The notes under the pieces were generated by a model. The model was not told the origin of the DNA and did not search any database. It saw nothing but the letters and a program-made list of their open reading frames with translations. A DNA stretch of 64,000 nt from Bradyrhizobium amphicarpaeae (GTDB taxonomy: Bacteria > Pseudomonadota > Alphaproteobacteria > Rhizobiales > Xanthobacteraceae). Shown here one piece after another: positions 18,669 to 26,897 of the stretch (the stretch's first letter is position 1; each line of letters starts with the position of its first letter). The stretch spans positions 2,200,001 to 2,264,000 of the forward strand of contig NZ_CP029426.2 of NCBI RefSeq assembly GCF_002266435.3. Reading direction: 5' to 3'. The position numbers were made by a program, and so were the translations under genes.

Positions 18669-20405
18669 TCAGCGCGCGTTCAGCAGCGCCAGCAACACGA
18701 CCACTGCGCAGGCGAGCGCCGCTGTCGTCAACTTCCAGAACATCAGCGGGCTGCGTTCGAGCAGTGGCGTGATCCGGGTGTCGAGATAGGCTGGGTTGGG
18801 GTTGCGTAGCTCGAAGATGAACTCCGAGAGATCCTCGTGCCGCTTGGTGGGATCGGGATGGAGCGCGCGGCGGAGTGCGCCGTCGATCCAGGCCGGCACA
18901 TTGCGGTCATCATCGGCTGGACGGTATTTGAGCTTGCGCACATCCGCCTTGCGCCGGATCCTGGCGATCTGGGCCCCGTAGGGAAGCTTTCCTGTCAGCA
19001 TCTGGTAGCAGATCACCGCCAGCGAATACATGTCGGAGCGCGGCGAGCCGCCTAGCCCGAGAAAATACTCCGGCGCCGTGTACTGCACCGTTCCCAGGAT
19101 TTCGTCAGCCTCGTTCGGGGGCGCCGCTTCCGCGACGCCGGCCACCCTGACCGATCCGAAGTCGATGATCTTCGCGGTGCCGGTCTTGTCGATCAGGATG
19201 TTGTCGGGCCTGAGGTCCTGATGCAGCATCTCCATGCGGTGGAAGGCGCGCAGGCCCGCGGCGATCTGCTCAATGATGCCGCGCACGGTTTCGAGATCGG
19301 GTCGCGGATTGTCGGTCATCCACTGCCTCAGGGTCTGCCCCTCGACGAATTCGGTCGCGACATAGAGATAGCTGCGTCGCCTGGACTGTGACAGCGGTTT
19401 CAGCACGTGCGGGCTGTCGATCCGGCGTGCGATCCACTCCTCCATCAGGAAACGCTTGAGATAGGCGGCATTGTCGCGCAAATCGACCGACGGCAGCTTG
19501 AGCGCGACCGGCCGCTCGGTCTCGACGTCGACGGCGAGATAGATGTGGCTGCGGCTGCTGCCGTGGATCTCGCGGACGATGCGGTAGCCGTCGAAGATCG
19601 CGCGCGGCTCCGGCAGCGGAGGCAGTGGCAGTTGCGAGGTCTGATTGAAGATGCCGGCCGGCTCGCGCCGCGGCAGCGCGTCGATGCGGATGATCTGGAC
19701 GGTGATGTTGTCGTCGCTGCCGCGCCGATAGGCTTCCTCGACGATCGCCTTTGCCGCTCCGTCGAGCTCGCCGGCGTGCTCGTTCAGCGCGCTCGTGATG
19801 AAGCGCGCGTCGACGAATTCGTAGGCGCCGTCGGTCGCCAGCAGAAAGATGTCGCCGGCCTCGACCTCGAACGCCTGGTAGTCGATCTCGAGCTGCGGAT
19901 TGATGCCGAGCGCGCGGCCGAGATAGGTCTGTTCGGACGAGACGATGATGCGGTGATCGTCGGTCAGCTGCTCCAGCGCCTTGCCGGCGACGCGGTAGAT
20001 GCGGCAGTCGCCGACATGGAAGATGTGCGCGGTGGTCGCCTTGATGACCATGGCGCTGAGCGTGCAGACGTAGCCCTTGTCGCGGTCATAGGCGTATTGG
20101 CTCTTGCGCGTCTGCGCGTGCAGCCAGGAATTGGTCGCGTCCAGCACGCGGCGGGCGGACGTCTTCACCGTCCAGGATTCCGACGTGCAGTAATAGTCCA
20201 TCAGGAAGCTCTTGACCGCCGACTCGCTGGCGATCTGGCTCACCGTGCTGCTGGAAATGCCGTCGGCGAGGACCGCTGCGATGCCCTTCAGGCCGAGCAG
20301 CGGCTCCTCCGGAATCAGAACGCCGTGAAAATCCTGGTTGACGGGCTTGCGACCCCTATCGGAATGCTGGCCGACCGAAATCAGGAGTCCGCGGGTCATC
20401 GTCAT
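18669..20405 (-). CDS. Fused PP2C-type protein phosphatase and Ser/Thr protein kinase, C-terminal membrane anchor
   Basis: This 578-residue bifunctional protein has an N-terminal PP2C phosphatase (about residues 5-245) with the metal-binding motifs VNQDF, LADGISSS, HVGDCRIYR, ATDGAYEF and DDNITV. A Hanks-type kinase follows (about 270-530): Lys in PVALKLP, catalytic loop LHQDLRPDNILI (HQD in place of HRD), DFGSV, and APEYFLG. One transmembrane helix near the C-terminus (LTTAALACAVVVLLALL) anchors it with both domains in the cytoplasm. The frame extends 41 codons upstream into the channel gene; the ATGs at 20405 or 20399 fit the domain start. It lies 61 bases after the formate/nitrite channel on the same strand, suggesting one transcript. 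Confidence 0.9.
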   Translation of the reverse strand: MTMTRGLLISVGQHSDRGRKPVNQDFHGVLIPEEPLLGLKGIAAVLADGISSSTVSQIASESAVKSFLMDYYCTSESWTVKTSARRVLDATNSWLHAQTRKSQYAYDRDKGYVCTLSAMVIKATTAHIFHVGDCRIYRVAGKALEQLTDDHRIIVSSEQTYLGRALGINPQLEIDYQAFEVEAGDIFLLATDGAYEFVDARFITSALNEHAGELDGAAKAIVEEAYRRGSDDNITVQIIRIDALPRREPAGIFNQTSQLPLPPLPEPRAIFDGYRIVREIHGSSRSHIYLAVDVETERPVALKLPSVDLRDNAAYLKRFLMEEWIARRIDSPHVLKPLSQSRRRSYLYVATEFVEGQTLRQWMTDNPRPDLETVRGIIEQIAAGLRAFHRMEMLHQDLRPDNILIDKTGTAKIIDFGSVRVAGVAEAAPPNEADEILGTVQYTAPEYFLGLGGSPRSDMYSLAVICYQMLTGKLPYGAQIARIRRKADVRKLKYRPADDDRNVPAWIDGALRRALHPDPTKRHEDLSEFIFELRNPNPAYLDTRITPLLERSPLMFWKLTTAALACAVVVLLALLNAR

Positions 20406-20466: not shown

Positions 20467-21306
20467 TCAGGCCACGACGCGAGGCTTGGCCGCCTTGTCG
20501 AACTGGCGCTTCGGCTTGGTGAGGACATGCGTGGTGTAGAGGGTCATGCCGGTGAAGGCGAGGCCTCCCACGAGGTTGCCGAGCACGGTCGGGATCTCAT
20601 TCCAGATCAGATAGTCCATGATCGAGAATTTCGCATGAAGCATCAGGCCCGACGGGAACAGGAACATGTTCACGACGGAATGTTCGAACACCATGTAGAA
20701 GAACACCAGGATCGGCATCCACATCGCGATGACCTTGCCGGGGACCGAGGTCGAGATCATGGCGCCGACGACGCCGGTCGAGACCATCCAGTTGCAGAGC
20801 ATGCCGCGCATGAACAGGGTCGCCATGCCGGCTGCGCCGTGTGCGGCATAGCCGAGCGTCCGGCCTTCGCCGATGTTGCCGATCGCCGCGCCGACCTTGT
20901 CGGGCTCCTGCGTGAAGCCGAACGTCGTGACGAAGGCCATCATGAAAGCCACGGTGAAGGCGCCGGCGAAATTGCCGACGAACACCAGACCCCAATTGCG
21001 CAGTACGCCGCCGATCGTGACGCCCGGGCGCTTGTCGATCAGGGCGAGCGGCGACAGCACGAACACGCCGGTGAGGAGATCGAAGCCCAGCAGATAGAGC
21101 ATGACGAAGCCGACCGGAAACAGTAGCGCGCCGACCAGCGGCTGCCCCGTGTTCACGTTGATCGTGACGGCGAACCAGGCCGCCAGAGCCAGGATGGCGC
21201 CGGCCATGTAGGCGCGGATGATGGTGTCCCGGGTGGACATGAAGATCTTGGACTCGCCCGCATCCACCATCTTGGTGACGAATTCCGAAGGCGCGAGATA
21301 CGACAT
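20467..21306 (-). CDS. Formate/nitrite transporter family channel
   Basis: This 279-residue inner-membrane channel of the FocA/NirC family is expected to carry nitrite or formate. Six helices are predicted, with family segments such as NFAGAFTVAFMMAF, GMLCNWMV and FEHSVVNMFLFPSGL (containing the conserved selectivity histidine). The start at 21306 has AAAGGAA upstream; a longer frame reaches 21342. Its location opposite the nitrate uptake and reduction genes makes nitrite the likely substrate. A sigma-54-type promoter (21547-21564, minus strand) and a hexaloop hairpin lie in its upstream region. Confidence 0.9.
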   Translation of the reverse strand: MSYLAPSEFVTKMVDAGESKIFMSTRDTIIRAYMAGAILALAAWFAVTINVNTGQPLVGALLFPVGFVMLYLLGFDLLTGVFVLSPLALIDKRPGVTIGGVLRNWGLVFVGNFAGAFTVAFMMAFVTTFGFTQEPDKVGAAIGNIGEGRTLGYAAHGAAGMATLFMRGMLCNWMVSTGVVGAMISTSVPGKVIAMWMPILVFFYMVFEHSVVNMFLFPSGLMLHAKFSIMDYLIWNEIPTVLGNLVGGLAFTGMTLYTTHVLTKPKRQFDKAAKPRVVA

Positions 21307-21523
21307 CAATGGTTCCTTTTGCTTCGTAAGTGAGATCGGCACGCTCGCTGGAGCAAGCGCGGCTGAACATCATCGGGGCCATGCGGACGGCTCTGCCGCG
21401 CACGAGGGCTATGGAAGTTTGGAAGCCTTGGGATCGCGTCGCGACGACTGCCGGGGAGGGCCGCGAAGCCGTTGAGCTTCCGGGGTGCGGCCGTCAGAGG
21501 CTGCACCATTGCGGACAAGCCGC

Positions 21524-21537
21524 CGTCTTCGTTGACG
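21524..21537 (-). promoter_or_regulatory. Leader stem-loop with AnnGnn hexaloop (nitrite channel leader)
   Basis: On the minus strand CGTC-AACGAA-GACG forms a 4-base-pair stem with a six-base loop having A at position 1 and G at position 4. It starts at the base predicted as +1 from the sigma-54 element. A second small hairpin (GCGG-CTTGT-CCGC) follows directly. The loop pattern is that bound by ANTAR antiterminator proteins. Confidence 0.45.
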
Positions 21538-21546
21538 CACCATGAA

Positions 21547-21564
21547 ATGCAAGTCGCGTGCCGA
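21547..21564 (-). promoter_or_regulatory. Sigma-54-type promoter of the nitrite channel / phosphatase-kinase unit
   Basis: Minus-strand TCGGCACGCGACTTGCAT has GG and GC separated by ten bases, matching the -24/-12 consensus (TGGCACG-N4-TTGC) except one base. The predicted +1 is about 21537, with a leader of about 230 bases before the ATG at 21306. Confidence 0.6.
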
Positions 21565-21783
21565 GCTGGCGTCATAAAAAAGATAAGTAAAGTCAATTGG
21601 ATGGCGCGCGTCTTGATCTGATTTTTGCGAGGTCGGCGGCTTCTCGCTTAGGCGACTGCATAAGATTTGTGCGCTGCACGCGTAGTGAGCAGATAGCAAA
21701 TTTCGCAAGCGGAACTGGTCTGCGTCAGTCTGGCGCGGTGTGCCTAACGCGTTGAATATTAGATGCTTTTCGATCGGTGATGC

Positions 21784-21800
21784 TTGGCATGAAGCTTGAA
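21784..21800 (+). promoter_or_regulatory. nrtA: Sigma-54-type promoter of nrtABC
   Basis: TTGGCATGAAGCTTGAA has GG and GA ten bases apart, close to the consensus and similar to the narK element. The predicted +1 is about 21811, giving a leader of about 174 bases. Confidence 0.5.
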
Positions 21801-21812
21801 TGGTTCCAAGTC

Positions 21813-21830
21813 GACGCCATTGAAGCCGTC
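21813..21830 (+). promoter_or_regulatory. Leader stem-loop at predicted +3 of nrtA transcript
   Basis: GACGCC-ATTGAA-GCCGTC: four base pairs, one C-C mismatch, and a closing C-G pair around a hexaloop with A1 and G4. It aligns with the narK leader element over 21 bases with four differences. Confidence 0.45.
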
Positions 21831-21856
21831 CCGCGAGACTTCTCATCCGAATTTGC

Positions 21857-21916
21857 TGACGCCACCAGACGGGGGTCTCCCGCGTCACGCGTTCGCATGC
21901 GCCTTTTCTGGCGTCA
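21857..21916 (+). other. Long-range inverted repeat in the nrtA leader
   Basis: TGACGCCA (21857-21864) and TGGCGTCA (21909-21916) are exact reverse complements. They could bracket a folded domain of the nrtA leader that contains further GC-rich stems. Confidence 0.4.
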
Positions 21917-21957
21917 CGGACGGACCGGGCTGCTCGTGCGTACTGACACCATCATTC

Positions 21958-21968
21958 GCAACGACGCA
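21958..21968 (+). promoter_or_regulatory. GCAACGACGCA leader motif before nrtA
   Basis: An 11-base motif also present in the narK leader (25360-25370), here ending 17 bases before the nrtA ATG. AACGAC forms a potential hexaloop closed by GC pairs. Confidence 0.4.
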
Positions 21969-21984
21969 AAGGACGACACCGCCT

Positions 21985-23301
21985 ATGACAAAGCGCATTC
22001 GCCGGCCTTCGAATACTGGCCTCAGCCGCCGTCAAGTGTTGAAGGCCGCCGGCAGTACCGCGGCTCTTCTCGCCGCCGCCAAACTCAATTTCCCCGCCGG
22101 AGCGTTCGCGCAGGATTCAGGCCCCGAGGTCAAGGGCGCCAAGCTCGGCTTCATCGCGCTCACCGACGCGACCCCACTGTTCGTTGCCAAGGAGAAGGGC
22201 ATCTTCACCAAATACGGCATGCCCGACGTCGAGGTGCAGAAGCAGGCCTCCTGGGGCACCACGCGCGACAATCTCGTGCTCGGCTCGGAAGGCAACGGCA
22301 TCGACGGCGCGCACATCCTGACCCCGATGCCGTATCTGATCTCGGCCGGTAAGGTGACGCAGAACAACCAGCCGACGCCGATGTATATCCTGGCGCGCCT
22401 GAACCTGAACGGACAGTGCATCTCGGTCGCCAAGGAATATGCCGACCTCAAGATCGGCGTCGATACCGCACCTTTCAAACCGGCGTTGGAGAAGAAGAAG
22501 GCTGGTGGCAAGGGCGTGAAGGCGGCGATGACCTTCCCGGGCGGAACGCACGATCTCTGGATCCGCTACTGGCTCGCTGCCGGTGGCATCGATCCGGACA
22601 AGGATATCGAGACCATCGTGGTCCCGCCGGCGCAAATGGTGGCCAACATGAAGGTTGGCACCATGGACTGCTTCTGCGTCTGCGAGCCCTGGAATCTCCA
22701 GCTGATCCACCAGAACATCGGTTACACCGCGATCACCACCGGCGAACTCTGGGACAAGCACCCCGAAAAATCGTTCGGCATGCGCGCGGCCTGGGTCGAC
22801 AAATATCCGAAGGCCGCGAAAGCGCTGCTGATGGCCGTGATGGAAGCCCAGCAATGGTCCGAGAAGATGGAGAACCGCGAAGAGGCGGCGGCGATCTGCG
22901 CCAAGCGGCAGTGGATCAATTGCCCGGTTGAGGACGTCACCGACCGCATGAAGGGCAAGTTCGACTACGGGACTGGCCGCGTGGTCGAGAACTCGCCGCA
23001 GCAGATGCGCTTCTGGAAAGATCAGGCTTCCTATCCGTTCCAGAGCCACGATCTCTGGTTCCTCACGGAGGATATTCGCTGGGGCAAGTACGAGGCGAAT
23101 TTCGATACCAAGGCGCTAATTGCCAAGGTCAACCGCGAAGACCTCTGGAAGGACGCGGCCAAGGCGCTGGGCGTCGCTGCCGCCGAAATTCCAACCTCCA
23201 CCTCGCGCGGCAAGGAGACCTTCTTCGACGGCAAGGTGTTCGATCCCGAAAATCCGGCGGCCTATCTGAAGTCGCTCGCGATCAAGCGCGTCGAAGTCTG
23301 A
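21985..23301 (+). CDS. nrtA: Nitrate ABC transporter substrate-binding protein
   Basis: This 438-residue nitrate-binding protein of the NrtA family has a twin-arginine leader (LSRRQVLKAAG, hydrophobic stretch, cleavage near GAFAQ), so the folded protein is exported by Tat. The body has the CmpA/NrtA-type features GFIALTDATPLFVAKEKG, FPGGTHDLWIRYWL and a long C-terminal part. It captures nitrate in the periplasm and hands it to NrtB. The start at 21985 is chosen because AAAGGAC precedes it and the Tat leader begins there; the frame is open back to 21796. A hairpin with T-run follows the stop codon. Confidence 0.93.
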   Translation: MTKRIRRPSNTGLSRRQVLKAAGSTAALLAAAKLNFPAGAFAQDSGPEVKGAKLGFIALTDATPLFVAKEKGIFTKYGMPDVEVQKQASWGTTRDNLVLGSEGNGIDGAHILTPMPYLISAGKVTQNNQPTPMYILARLNLNGQCISVAKEYADLKIGVDTAPFKPALEKKKAGGKGVKAAMTFPGGTHDLWIRYWLAAGGIDPDKDIETIVVPPAQMVANMKVGTMDCFCVCEPWNLQLIHQNIGYTAITTGELWDKHPEKSFGMRAAWVDKYPKAAKALLMAVMEAQQWSEKMENREEAAAICAKRQWINCPVEDVTDRMKGKFDYGTGRVVENSPQQMRFWKDQASYPFQSHDLWFLTEDIRWGKYEANFDTKALIAKVNREDLWKDAAKALGVAAAEIPTSTSRGKETFFDGKVFDPENPAAYLKSLAIKRVEV

Positions 23302-23309
23302 TGGAGCCA

Positions 23310-23341
23310 GCGGCCGCCCCAGGGCGGCCGCATCGTCTTTT
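23310..23341 (+). terminator. Hairpin with short T-run between nrtA and nrtB
   Basis: GCGGCCGCCC-CA-GGGCGGCCGC (23310-23331) is followed within six bases by TTTT. It looks like a leaky terminator or 3' stabiliser that would favour nrtA over nrtB and nrtC. Confidence 0.7.
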
Positions 23342-23361
23342 GAAGCCGGAGAGATATTGCG

Positions 23362-24258
23362 ATGAACATGCCTGCCACGAAGTTGGATGTTGAGACCGCG
23401 AGGCCCGTTGGCGCGGCCGCAGCGGTCGTTGCGATGACACCGAAGCGCGCCGCGCGTAGCGAAGCTTATGCGCGGATGGCGCGGGAGACCGCGGTTCGCG
23501 TGATCCCGCCGATCGTCGTGATCGCGCTGTTGATGCTGGTGTGGGAGCTCGTCTGCCGCCGCGCCGGGTCGGCGCTGCCGCCGCCATCGAAAGTGTTCCA
23601 GGACACCAAGGAGTTGATCTTCGATCCGTTCTTCGACCGTGGCGGCATCGATAAAGGCCTGTTCTGGCATCTCTCAGCCAGTCTCCAGCGCGTCGCGCTA
23701 GGTTACTCGCTTTCCGCCATCGCGGGTATCGCGCTCGGCGTGCTCGTCGGGCAATCCGTCTGGGCCATGCGCGGGCTCGATCCGCTGTTCCAGGTGCTGC
23801 GCACGATTCCGCCGCTGGCTTGGCTGCCGCTCTCGCTTGCGGCCTTCCGCGACGGCCAGCCCTCGGCGATCTTCGTCATCTTCATCACATCGATCTGGCC
23901 GATCATCATCAACACCGCGGTCGGCATCCGCAACATCCCGCAGGACTATCGCAACGTCGCAGCTGTGGTGCAGCTCAATCCGCTGGAGTTCTTTGGCAAG
24001 ATCATGATCCCTGCCGCGGCGCCCTATATCTTCACGGGCCTGCGCATCGGCATCGGCCTGTCGTGGCTTGCCATCATCGCTGCGGAAATGCTGATCGGTG
24101 GCGTCGGCATCGGCTTCTTCATCTGGGACGCCTGGAATTCCTCGCATATCAGCGAAATCATTCTGGCGTTGTTCTATGTCGGCATCATCGGGTTCGTGCT
24201 CGATCGCATGATCGCGGGCCTCGGCAAGATCGTCACTCGTGGCACGGCTCAGGGCTGA
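23362..24258 (+). CDS. nrtB: Nitrate ABC transporter permease
   Basis: This 298-residue inner-membrane permease of the NrtB/TauC family has a cytoplasmic N-terminal stretch of about 45 residues and then six to seven helices. The EAA-type loop is AAVVQLNPLEFFGKIMIPAAAPYIF (seen around residues 196-220). ITSIWPIIINTAVGIRNIPQ and AAEMLIGGVGIGFFIWDAW are typical of nitrate permeases. It is six bases from the ATPase gene and forms the membrane channel of NrtABC. Confidence 0.93.
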   Translation: MNMPATKLDVETARPVGAAAAVVAMTPKRAARSEAYARMARETAVRVIPPIVVIALLMLVWELVCRRAGSALPPPSKVFQDTKELIFDPFFDRGGIDKGLFWHLSASLQRVALGYSLSAIAGIALGVLVGQSVWAMRGLDPLFQVLRTIPPLAWLPLSLAAFRDGQPSAIFVIFITSIWPIIINTAVGIRNIPQDYRNVAAVVQLNPLEFFGKIMIPAAAPYIFTGLRIGIGLSWLAIIAAEMLIGGVGIGFFIWDAWNSSHISEIILALFYVGIIGFVLDRMIAGLGKIVTRGTAQG

Positions 24259-24264
24259 GGGAGA

Positions 24265-25065
24265 ATGCATATGACCGCCTATCTGAAGCTCGACCACATC
24301 GACAAGGTCTTTACCCGCGGCGCCGCCACCACCGAGGTGCTGAAGGAGATCAATCTCACGATCGAGAAGGGCGAATACGTCTCGATCATCGGCCACTCAG
24401 GCTGCGGCAAGTCGACCCTGCTCAACATCATTGCTGGGTTGACCAACGCCACCACCGGCGGCGTGCTGCTGGAGAATCGGGAGGTCAATTCGCCCGGGCC
24501 CGACCGCGCCGTGGTGTTCCAGAACCACAGCCTGCTGCCGTGGCTCACCGTCTACGAGAACGTCCGGCTCGGCGTCGACAAGGTGTTCGCCAGGACCAAG
24601 ACCCGCGCCGAGCGCGACGCCTGGGTGATGCACAATCTCAATCTGGTGCAAATGGCCCATGCCAGGGACAAGCGTCCCTCAGAAATCTCCGGCGGCATGA
24701 AGCAGCGCGTCGGCATCGCGCGGGCGCTGGCGATGGAACCGAAGGTGCTGCTGCTGGACGAGCCCTTCGGCGCGCTCGACGCGCTGACCCGCGCTCACCT
24801 GCAGGACTCGGTGATGGCGCTGCATCAGAAGCTCGGCAACACAATCTTGATGATCACTCACGACGTCGACGAGGCCGTGCTGCTGTCCGACCGCATCGTG
24901 ATGATGACCAATGGGCCGAGTGCGCGCATCGGCGAGGTGCTGGAGGTGCCGCTGGTACGCCCGCGCAAACGGCTCGAACTCGCCACCAACACCACTTACT
25001 TGAAGTGCCGTCAGCGTGTGCTCGAATTCCTCTACGAGCGTCACCGCTTCGTCGAGGCCGCGTAA
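24265..25065 (+). CDS. nrtC: Nitrate ABC transporter ATP-binding protein
   Basis: This 266-residue ATPase carries Walker A GHSGCGKST (about residues 42-50), Q-loop VVFQNHSLLPWLTVYENV, signature SGGMKQRVGIARAL, Walker B LLLDEPFGALDALTR and the ITHDVDEA switch. It lacks the extra binding-protein-like domain of cyanobacterial NrtC and so corresponds in form to NrtD; the name nrtC follows usage in Bradyrhizobium. The start is ATGCATATG, with either ATG possible. A 14-base-pair inverted repeat follows at 25106-25144. Confidence 0.93.
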   Translation: MHMTAYLKLDHIDKVFTRGAATTEVLKEINLTIEKGEYVSIIGHSGCGKSTLLNIIAGLTNATTGGVLLENREVNSPGPDRAVVFQNHSLLPWLTVYENVRLGVDKVFARTKTRAERDAWVMHNLNLVQMAHARDKRPSEISGGMKQRVGIARALAMEPKVLLLDEPFGALDALTRAHLQDSVMALHQKLGNTILMITHDVDEAVLLSDRIVMMTNGPSARIGEVLEVPLVRPRKRLELATNTTYLKCRQRVLEFLYERHRFVEAA

Positions 25066-25105
25066 CGAAAAGTTAGCGCGAAGGCTGCGCTCAAATAATC
25101 GATAC

Positions 25106-25144
25106 TTCGCTCAATCCTTATGCGCCGCACAAGGATTGAGCGAA
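25106..25144. repeat. Perfect 14-base inverted repeat upstream of narK
   Basis: TTCGCTCAATCCTT (25106-25119) and AAGGATTGAGCGAA (25131-25144) flank an 11-base loop containing the palindrome TGCG-C-CGCA. It may terminate nrtABC (no T-run) or bind an activator: its centre is about 110 bases upstream of the -24 element of narK. Confidence 0.85.
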
Positions 25145-25234
25145 TCGCAAATTCAGCGTGCGGAACGGCCTTGCGAAAATTTCTGGCAATTCGAACAACC
25201 CGCTGAAATCCCTGCATTTCCGGCATGTGCGCAA

Positions 25235-25251
25235 TTGGCACGGAAATTGAA
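25235..25251 (+). promoter_or_regulatory. narK: Sigma-54-type promoter of narK-bjgb-flp-nasC
   Basis: TTGGCACGGAAATTGAA has the full -24 box TTGGCACG and GA ten bases after GG. The predicted +1 is about 25262, with a leader of about 134 bases. Confidence 0.65.
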
Positions 25252-25263
25252 ACGTCCTTGCGC

Positions 25264-25281
25264 GACGCCAACGACGACGTC
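25264..25281 (+). promoter_or_regulatory. Leader stem-loop at predicted +3 of narK transcript
   Basis: GACGCC-AACGAC-GACGTC: four base pairs, a C-A mismatch and a closing C-G pair around hexaloop AACGAC (A1, G4). It matches the nrtA leader element and shares the core CGYCAACGAMGACG with the nitrite channel leader. Confidence 0.45.
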
Positions 25282-25337
25282 CCTCAACATCATCAATCAG
25301 CATCGTGAACTCGCCACCGGGTGAAGCCTCGGAGCGC

Positions 25338-25371
25338 GCCTCCATGTGAGGCAGAGCCTGCAACGACGCAG
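25338..25371 (+). promoter_or_regulatory. Tandem hairpins in the distal narK leader
   Basis: GCCTC-CATGT-GAGGC (25338-25352) is followed after five bases by CTGC-AACGAC-GCAG (25358-25371), again with an AnnGnn hexaloop. The pair precedes the narK ATG by 25 bases. Confidence 0.45.
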
Positions 25372-26817: not shown

Positions 26818-26897
26818 TCTCTCTGATGACGTTTGACCCATGAACCTTGTTCGCAATGGCGCGCACCAAGGCAAACCGAAACAGACAGGAGAACATC

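What the first reader, a model, noticed from the sequence alone, without database searches (positions are those of the whole stretch)
21524..25281. Related AnnGnn-hexaloop stem-loop at the first transcribed bases of three nitrogen operons
Taking +1 as 12 bases after the -12 element, stem-loops start at +1 (channel, 21537 minus), +3 (nrtA, 21813) and +3 (narK, 25264). narK and nrtA elements agree at 17 of 21 positions; channel and narK share CGYCAACGAMGACG. Each loop has A1 and G4, the pattern bound by ANTAR proteins (known for NasR and NasT). Canonical ANTAR targets have two adjacent hairpins; here only one per site is clear and two stems have a mismatch. A shared NasT-type control of uptake, reduction, nitrite channel and kinase would be a coherent nitrate-responsive circuit.
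Basis: partly seen in the sequence, partly recalled or inferred. Interest (0 to 1): 0.78.

Follow-up and report, generated by a model that had tools for sequence, protein, structure and literature searches.

The report
Nitrate-switch RNA hairpins in Bradyrhizobium leaders
The first RNA made from three neighbouring nitrate-use operons folds into a small hairpin of the kind read by the nitrate-sensing protein NasT; it is strictly conserved, but in the transporter operon it stands without the second hairpin and terminator that such switches normally carry and that relatives in sister genera still have.

Summary
Three sigma54-type promoters are each followed within 1-3 bases by a hairpin with hexaloop A1-N-N-G4. 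Among 81 nrtA loci (window included) 62 keep the nrtA hairpin, A1 and G4 invariant while four other loop bases vary; 27 of 27 distinct narK leaders and 25 of 25 channel leaders keep theirs. In a scan of four leader families, five of six conserved hexaloop hairpins with fixed loop bases 1 and 4 are A/G. The nrtA stem covaries between genera. Of the 19 other nrtA leaders, 16 have a second hairpin of this type, and in 15 its 3' arm pairs with the arm before a T-rich tail: classical ANTAR anatomy. The genome encodes NasS-NasT. So these are ANTAR-type, most probably NasT, elements. NasT control of narK is published; I found nothing in print on the nrtA or channel leaders. New is the derived form in Bradyrhizobium: a lone hexaloop (nrtA), two 76 nt apart (narK), a strong and a weak one (channel), without a convincing intrinsic terminator. 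How binding changes expression there is open, and NasT binding was not tested.

The parts
21548..21562 (-). sigma54-type -24/-12 promoter of the channel gene (GGCAC-N5-TTGCA)
   Evidence: sequence; a match in 25 of 25 loci with the channel
21524..21537 (-). channel P1 hairpin CGTC[AACGAA]GACG at +1
   Evidence: GTC[AACGA(A/T/C)]GAC in 25 of 25
21501..21514 (-). channel weak second hexaloop CCGC[AATGGT]GCAG (CxA mismatch), 9 nt after P1
   Evidence: A1 and G4 25 of 25 while loop positions 2, 3, 5 vary; did not pass the stem criterion of the scan; forcing it together with P1 costs 11.9 kcal/mol on average
21785..21800 (+). sigma54-type promoter of nrtABC (TGGCAT-N5-TTGAA)
   Evidence: sequence; relatives; a separate promoter for nrtABC is reported in PMC4724949
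21813..21830 (+). nrtA P1 hairpin GACGCC[ATTGAA]GCCGTC at +3
   Evidence: 62 of 81 nrtA loci, A1 and G4 62 of 62; an 18-mer of this form in 54 of 60 Bradyrhizobium genomes
21888..21908 (+). only terminator-like site found in the nrtA leader (CGCGTTCGCATGCG-CCTTTTC), at chance level
   Evidence: 1 found, 0.7 expected from shuffles
25236..25251 (+). sigma54-type promoter of narK (TGGCAC-N5-TTGAA)
   Evidence: sequence; relatives
25264..25281 (+). narK P1 hairpin GACGCC[AACGAC]GACGTC at +3
   Evidence: 27 of 27 distinct leaders; the 18-mer in 19 of 60 genomes
25282..25357 (+). narK spacer of 76 nt; its first ~34 nt are nearly invariant and can pair with the P2-to-SD stretch
25358..25371 (+). narK P2 hairpin CTGC[AACGAC]GCAG near the start codon
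   Evidence: 27 of 27 distinct leaders
18669..20405 (-). PP2C phosphatase + Ser/Thr kinase fusion, same strand downstream of the channel
   Evidence: Pfam PP2C_2, Pkinase
20467..21306 (-). formate/nitrite transporter (channel)
   Evidence: Pfam PF01226
21985..25065 (+). nrtA, nrtB, nrtC nitrate ABC transporter genes
   Evidence: ORFs; nrtA Pfam NMT1_2; names follow PMC4724949
25396..26775 (+). narK MFS nitrate/nitrite transporter, first gene of narK-bjgb-flp-nasC
   Evidence: Pfam MFS_1; operon known in B. japonicum

Best explanation
The three hairpins are ANTAR-protein recognition elements, most likely bound by the genome's NasT once nitrate or nitrite frees it from NasS, at the 5' ends of sigma54-made transcripts for nitrate uptake (nrtABC), transport/reduction/NO detoxification (narK operon) and the formate/nitrite channel with its neighbouring kinase. 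They share ancestry with classical dual-hexaloop antiterminator leaders, still seen on nrtA in Afipia, Rhodopseudomonas, Methylobacterium and related lineages. In Bradyrhizobium the hexaloop is kept but the rest has been rebuilt: nrtA has one conserved hexaloop and no convincing intrinsic terminator, narK has two hexaloops 76 nt apart, the channel has a strong and a weak one 9 nt apart. Shown here: the element, its conservation, covariation, orthologous classical leaders, presence of NasT. Inferred: that NasT is the binder, that binding raises expression with nitrate, the direction of evolution, and the output step (Rho or weak-terminator read-through, or for narK exposure of the ribosome-binding site).
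For: A1/G4 constancy: nrtA loop A1 and G4 62/62 with positions 2, 3, 5, 6 varying; channel second loop A1 and G4 25/25 with positions 2, 3, 5 varying. Scan of hexaloop hairpins conserved in at least 90% of rows of four leader families: 12 found, 6 with fixed loop bases 1 and 4, A/G in 5 of these 6. nrtA P1 covariation on 15 distinct rows: 22 double-change cells against 8.1 +/- 2.5, 0/500 shuffles; score 0.595 against at most 0.232 when slid. Second hexaloop with A or G at 1 and G at 4 in 16 of 19 other nrtA leaders; in 15 of the 16 its 3' arm is complementary (5 nt or more) to the arm before a T-rich tail, e.g. L074 GGCCGCTG with CAGCGGCC-TTTTTT. NasT in 60 of 60 genus genomes, the nrtA P1 pattern in 54 of 60, 3 hits for the reversed pattern. 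NasT Arg145, Lys152, Tyr167 align with EutV Arg142, Lys149, Tyr164 (numbering counted by me). Published NasT dependence of narK.
Against: No binding or transcription data for nrtA or the channel. The dual-hairpin rule is not met in nrtA, and in narK the spacing far exceeds the 5-12 nt linkers of eut RNAs, where 14 nt or +20 nt impaired the response. The second channel hexaloop is unfavourable: forcing it with P1 costs 11.9 kcal/mol on average. In PMC6759348 narK-bjgb-flp rose in the nasT mutant under denitrifying conditions, its survey found a clear hairpin for only two down-regulated genes (coxS, nirA), and nrtA/blr2803 is not mentioned in its main text. Deletion of nrtABC had no growth effect in B. 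japonicum. NasT is in all 60 genomes, so loss of hairpins without NasT could not be tested. The stem of narK P1 varies only at one mismatch base, so it carries no covariation.
Confidence: 0.78

Rival explanations
1. Ordinary ANTAR antitermination throughout: each leader has a second hairpin and an attenuator that my scans miss (poor U-tract or Rho-dependent), and NasT simply promotes read-through as reported for nosR.
For: Sister-genus nrtA leaders have this anatomy; the weak second channel hexaloop has canonical spacing and excludes GC hairpins on both sides; 26 of 62 Bradyrhizobium-type nrtA leaders, 12 of 28 nirA and 6 of 25 channel leaders have some hairpin with a T-rich tail by a crude test; NasT antitermination on nosR is described in PMC6759348 and PMC6712156.
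Against: Only one conserved A/G hexaloop in the nrtA leader; the only terminator-like site in 21300-22000 is at chance level and none was listed on the minus (channel) strand; none on the + strand of the narK leader; 1 of 27 narK leaders passed the crude test.
Confidence: 0.35
2. Translational switch: NasT-stabilised hairpins release the ribosome-binding site, which otherwise pairs with leader sequence.
For: narK: conserved spacer complementary to the P2-to-SD stretch; forcing P1 and P2 raises the chance that the SD is unpaired from 0.24 to 0.51 on average, in 26 of 27 leaders, above shuffled spacers in two of three tested (2/100 and 1/100 shuffles reach it; 14/100 in the third). nirA: AGCTTCGT(T) at the SD is complementary to the hexaloop and 3' arm AACGAAGCT. 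RBS-overlapping ANTAR RNAs repress translation in actinobacteria (PMC8164766, passages); a translational level of nas control is proposed in Paracoccus (PMC5424462, passages).
Against: The same folding test shows no effect for nrtA (raised in 26 of 57, mean 0.50 to 0.49), channel (8 of 25) and nirA (2 of 28). The narK pairing shows no covariation. The published narK-lacZ data are from fusions called transcriptional.
Confidence: 0.25
3. The 5'-terminal hairpin mainly shields the mRNA 5' end from decay, independently of NasT.
For: It begins at +1 to +3 in all three operons of the window, with freely varying sequence between -12 and the hairpin in relatives.
Against: Does not explain A1/G4 constancy, loop sequences shared between genera or the classical leaders in sister genera.
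Confidence: 0.06
4. The binder is the other ANTAR protein of the genome (L002, AmiR-like by its neighbours), not NasT.
For: Two ANTAR genes were found in the genome.
Against: Published genetics assign narK and nirA to NasT; NasS-NasT lies directly upstream of the nirA-like gene, whose leader carries the same AACGAA hexaloop.
Confidence: 0.04

Closest known systems
NasR-nasF / EutV-eut dual-hexaloop ANTAR leaders (PMC3369931, PMC8934654; passages)
   Same: Hexaloops with A1 and G4 in mRNA leaders; the sister-genus nrtA leaders match, with terminator overlap in 15 of 16.
   Different: Bradyrhizobium nrtA has a single conserved hexaloop; narK hexaloops are 76 nt apart; no convincing U-run terminator.
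NasT-nosR, NasT-nirA and predicted narK/bjgb/coxS hairpins of B. diazoefficiens (PMC6759348)
   Same: Same regulator and genus; narK belongs to the published set.
   Different: nrtA (blr2803) is not in its main text, and I met no mention of the channel gene in the parts read (1-3 of 5). Conservation across species, the second narK hexaloop and the loss of classical anatomy are not in what I read. Its supplementary Fig. S1 could not be read.
Paracoccus denitrificans nasA leader, hairpins HI and HII (PMC5424462, PMC3795266; passages)
   Same: NasS-NasT nitrate control; one hairpin (HI) is needed, mutation of the other (HII) had little effect with nitrate.
   Different: There the leader is assigned to transcription termination; I did not compare its sequence.
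Actinobacterial RBS-overlapping ANTAR RNAs (PMC8164766; passages)
   Same: ANTAR hairpins at the ribosome-binding site; in some relatives' haemoglobin leaders the SD lies in a second A/G hexaloop.
   Different: Seen in relatives, not in the window; function untested.

Membership tests
ANTAR-target RNA, dual-hairpin definition (PMC3369931) | hexaloop with A1 and G4 on a stem of at least 3 bp | tested here: met
   All three P1 hairpins; nrtA and narK stems have one internal mismatch after the first pair
ANTAR-target RNA, dual-hairpin definition (PMC3369931) | second such hairpin nearby (eut linkers 5-12 nt) | tested here: not met
   nrtA: none conserved. narK: present but 76 nt away. Channel: only a weak one, 9 nt away. 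In the 19 other nrtA leaders: P2 in 16, with an A1/G4 P1 seen in 9 of them
ANTAR-target RNA, single-hexaloop definition (PMC8934654) | one hexaloop as minimal binding site | tested here: met
   by sequence and conservation only
ANTAR antitermination leader | intrinsic terminator mutually exclusive with the hairpin | tested here: inconclusive
   Chance-level site in the nrtA leader, none listed for narK or channel strands; present in 15 of 16 sister-type leaders
NasT regulon | NasS-NasT encoded in the genome, RNA-contact residues kept | tested here: met
   three residues checked
NasT regulon | direct NasT binding and nitrate/nasT-dependent expression | not testable with these tools
   Published for narK expression only, with the opposite sign under denitrification
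sigma54-dependent leader | -24/-12 element at the right distance | tested here: met
   by sequence; start sites not mapped
Rfam-described RNA family | match at gathering score | tested here: not met
   no match in the window

The most novel reading that the evidence does not exclude
Bradyrhizobium has turned a classical dual-hexaloop, terminator-based NasT switch into single- or widely-spaced-hexaloop switches that do not work by intrinsic-terminator antitermination. They would be natural single-hexaloop ANTAR sites of the kind the EutV structure paper allows for, with NasT acting at the very 5' end of the transcript through Rho, mRNA stability or ribosome access.
Probability: 0.35. Interest if true: 0.7.

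Novelty: new variant of a known kind. Interest (0 to 1): 0.52.

Why it matters
It extends the probable NasT circuit of soil and symbiotic bradyrhizobia to a nitrate transporter and to a channel-kinase gene pair, and it offers orthologous pairs (Bradyrhizobium against Afipia, Rhodopseudomonas, Methylobacterium) in which the same gene has a one-hexaloop and a two-hexaloop leader. That makes it directly testable whether ANTAR proteins can control genes from a single hexaloop and without an intrinsic terminator.

Tried and rejected
A common ribosome-site switch for all leaders was rejected: forcing the hairpins changed SD accessibility clearly only in narK, and one of three shuffle controls there was weak. 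The hairpin as a stand-alone genome motif was uninformative (80 hits). A second nrtA hexaloop near the start codon (AACGAC at 21960) was dropped because it is missing in many relatives. More distant narK leaders were sought, but of 150 genomes of the order only four, all of the genus, had a close narK (91% identity or more); the other 26 hits at E <= 1e-60 are 48-54% identical. Loss of hairpins without NasT could not be tested, since NasT is in 60 of 60 genomes. The matches were not checked one by one for lying before nrtA or narK. The upstream palindrome test was uninformative: 62 of 66 nrtA and 26 of 28 narK upstream regions matched, but so did 69 of 80 control windows in nrtB. The terminator test is crude and also counts hairpins outside the attenuator (18 of 19 other nrtA leaders pass, some at other places). 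RNAalifold on whole leaders gave structures with little covariation and was used only as a lead. Rows left out: narK L047 as a duplicate; nirA L114 and L125, where my extraction failed; 5 of 62 nrtA leaders without an AAAGG motif, L041, L042, L051, L077 and L081 (no clear or no adjacent P1), L068, L071 and L072 (no P2; L072 has only 82 nt upstream), and L052, L076 and L079 (same or very like rows). The non-core rows were picked because they fold, which favours the structure; two of them have loop base 1 other than A (L027 C, L029 G). One search picked a wrong upstream P2 for L074; searches show the right one.
Full report
What is there. The window lies in a 7.03 Mb genome, Bradyrhizobium-type by its relatives. 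Around the finding are, on the minus strand, a PP2C-kinase fusion and a formate/nitrite transporter, and on the plus strand nrtABC, narK, a haemoglobin gene, a flavoprotein gene and an assimilatory nitrate reductase gene (gene names follow PMC4724949, passages; haemoglobin and flavoprotein were not run against Pfam). The start sites are inferred from the promoter elements; PMC4724949 reports that nrtABC and the narK operon have different promoters. Rfam has no match in the window.

Conservation. The best 80 of 530 loci encoding NrtA relatives were kept; with the window that makes 81. Channel genes were found in 25 of these 81 and narK in 28, giving 27 distinct narK leaders; some loci are short, so absence means little. 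The sequence between the -12 element and the hairpin varies freely, while the hairpin does not. nrtA P1 is GACGCC[ANNGNN]GCCGTC in 62 of 81 loci, nearly all Bradyrhizobium or Tardiphaga records: loop positions 1 and 4 are A and G in 62 of 62, position 2 is T 61 / A 1, position 3 is T 54 / C 8, position 5 is A 56 / T 6, position 6 is A 44 / T 14 / C 4. The CxC mismatch is itself conserved. narK P1 is invariant apart from one mismatch-side base (A 25, C 2), and narK has a second, nearly invariant hexaloop CTGC[AACG(A/G)(C/A)]GCAG near the start codon (27 of 27). Channel P1 is GTC[AACGA(A/T/C)]GAC in 25 of 25. Its second, weak hexaloop keeps A1 and G4 in 25 of 25 while positions 2, 3 and 5 vary; A1 and T6 there are also needed by two competing GC hairpins, so G4 is the telling base, and forcing both channel hairpins costs 11.9 kcal/mol on average.

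Is A1/G4 special? I listed the hexaloop hairpins found in at least 90% of the distinct rows of four leader families (narK 27, nrtA 62, channel 25, nirA 28), whatever their loop bases. Twelve were found; six have fixed bases (90% or more) at loop positions 1 and 4; five of these are A/G (narK twice, nrtA, channel, nirA) and one is G/T. The leaders of three families had been cut at P1, but the scan covered the leaders down to the start codon region.

Sister genera. The 19 nrtA loci that lack the Bradyrhizobium-type P1 were read one by one: 16 of 19 have CAGC[(A/G)NNGNN]GCTG or a near form, and in 15 of these 16 the 3' half of that hairpin is complementary over 5-8 nt to the arm that precedes a T-rich tail (L080 is the exception by this criterion). 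Nine of the 16 also show an A1/G4 first hairpin, in six of them 2-3 nt before the second: for example GGGCC[ATTGAT]GGCCC in L049 and GGTCC[AACGAC]GGGCC in L080; in the three Methylobacterium loci (CCGTC[AACGGC]GACGG) the gap is longer. This is the classical ANTAR anatomy of PMC3369931 (passages). In L027 and L029 the first hairpin has C or G at loop position 1; in L041, L042, L051 and L081 no clear first hairpin was found; in L077 it lies farther off and has G at position 1; L068 and L071 have no second hairpin and L072 has only 82 nt of upstream sequence.

Covariation. On 15 distinct nrtA P1 rows, 84.4% of cells pair (shuffled 58.9 +/- 3.8), 22 cells have changes on both sides (8.1 +/- 2.5), the covariation score is 0.595 (0.183 +/- 0.048), none of 500 shuffles reaches these three, and slid versions score at most 0.232; the number of pairs with a change on both sides (5) is reached by 30 of 500 shuffles. 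The rows from other genera were chosen because they fold, so this leans towards the structure; the Bradyrhizobium rows themselves do not vary in the stem.

The regulator. Two ANTAR genes were found in the genome. One is NasT (196 aa, receiver plus ANTAR) followed by NasS and a nirA-like gene (nirA named by its place and the published nasTS-nirA order). By alignment with EutV (chain 6wsh_A), NasT Arg145, Lys152 and Tyr167 match EutV Arg142, Lys149 and Tyr164, which PMC8934654 names at the hexaloop G4 (passage; the residue match is my count). The nirA leader carries the hexaloop AACGA(A/G) in 28 of the 28 leaders extracted from 30 loci. NasT is found in 60 of 60 genus genomes, an 18-mer of the nrtA P1 form in 54 of 60 (reversed pattern: 3 hits) and of the narK P1 form in 19 of 60 (reversed: 1 hit); these matches were not checked one by one for place.

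How it may work. In the published scheme NasT freed from NasS by nitrate binds leader RNA and allows read-through (PMC6759348, parts 1-3 of 5 and a term search; PMC3795266, passages; PMC6712156, passages). For nrtA and narK here I find no convincing intrinsic terminator, one hexaloop or two far apart, and PMC8934654 reports that a 20-nt longer linker abolishes EutV antitermination while a single hexaloop is the minimal binding site. So either the attenuator is of another kind (Rho, weak U-tract), or binding acts on the ribosome site or on stability. For narK, folding favours a masked SD that opens when both hairpins form (26 of 27 leaders; shuffle controls 2, 1 and 14 of 100), but this fails as a general rule for the other leaders.

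What is known. narK under NasT is published, with opposite signs in aerobic cultures and denitrifying cultures, and a narK leader hairpin was predicted in PMC6759348. I found no report of nrtA or channel leaders as NasT targets in full-text searches, which cover only open-licence papers; supplementary files could not be read. B. japonicum nrtABC was dispensable for growth on nitrate. The finding is therefore a set of members of a known kind, with an architecture that departs from the textbook form.

Noticed in passing
26850-26865 and haemoglobin leaders in L015, L016, L020, L025, L065: The haemoglobin gene leader has a hexaloop AATGGC hairpin (weak stem in the window). In these five relatives, where the gene directly follows nrtC, the stem is long (8 bp in four, one mismatch in L020) and a second hairpin CGTGC[ANGGAG]GCAC puts the SD inside the hexaloop, which would suit NasT as a translational repressor.
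   Followed up: partly
L095-L125, nirA leaders: The sequence beside the nirA SD, AGCTTCGT(T), is complementary to the hexaloop and 3' arm AACGAAGCT of the upstream NasT-type hairpin; folding did not show an effect on SD access.
   Followed up: partly
L002 (G000:C1 near 2809418): A second ANTAR protein (221 aa) sits between two genes that look like AmiC-type binding proteins (resemblance by eye).
   Followed up: no
18669-20405 (-): A PP2C phosphatase fused to a Ser/Thr kinase lies right after the nitrite channel gene and is found beside it in 25 of 25 loci with the channel; its role in nitrate use is unknown to me.
   Followed up: no
21669-21679 (+) and relatives: A palindrome of the form GTGCNNNGCAC lies upstream of the nrtA promoter and recurs in relatives; it may be an activator site, but my loose control matched about as often.
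   Followed up: partly
L029 (NZ_JTIY01000019.1): A contig labelled Streptomyces sp. AcH 505 carries an nrtABC locus like those of Afipia and Rhodopseudomonas with a sigma54-ANTAR leader, so it is probably a contaminant or mislabelled.
   Followed up: no
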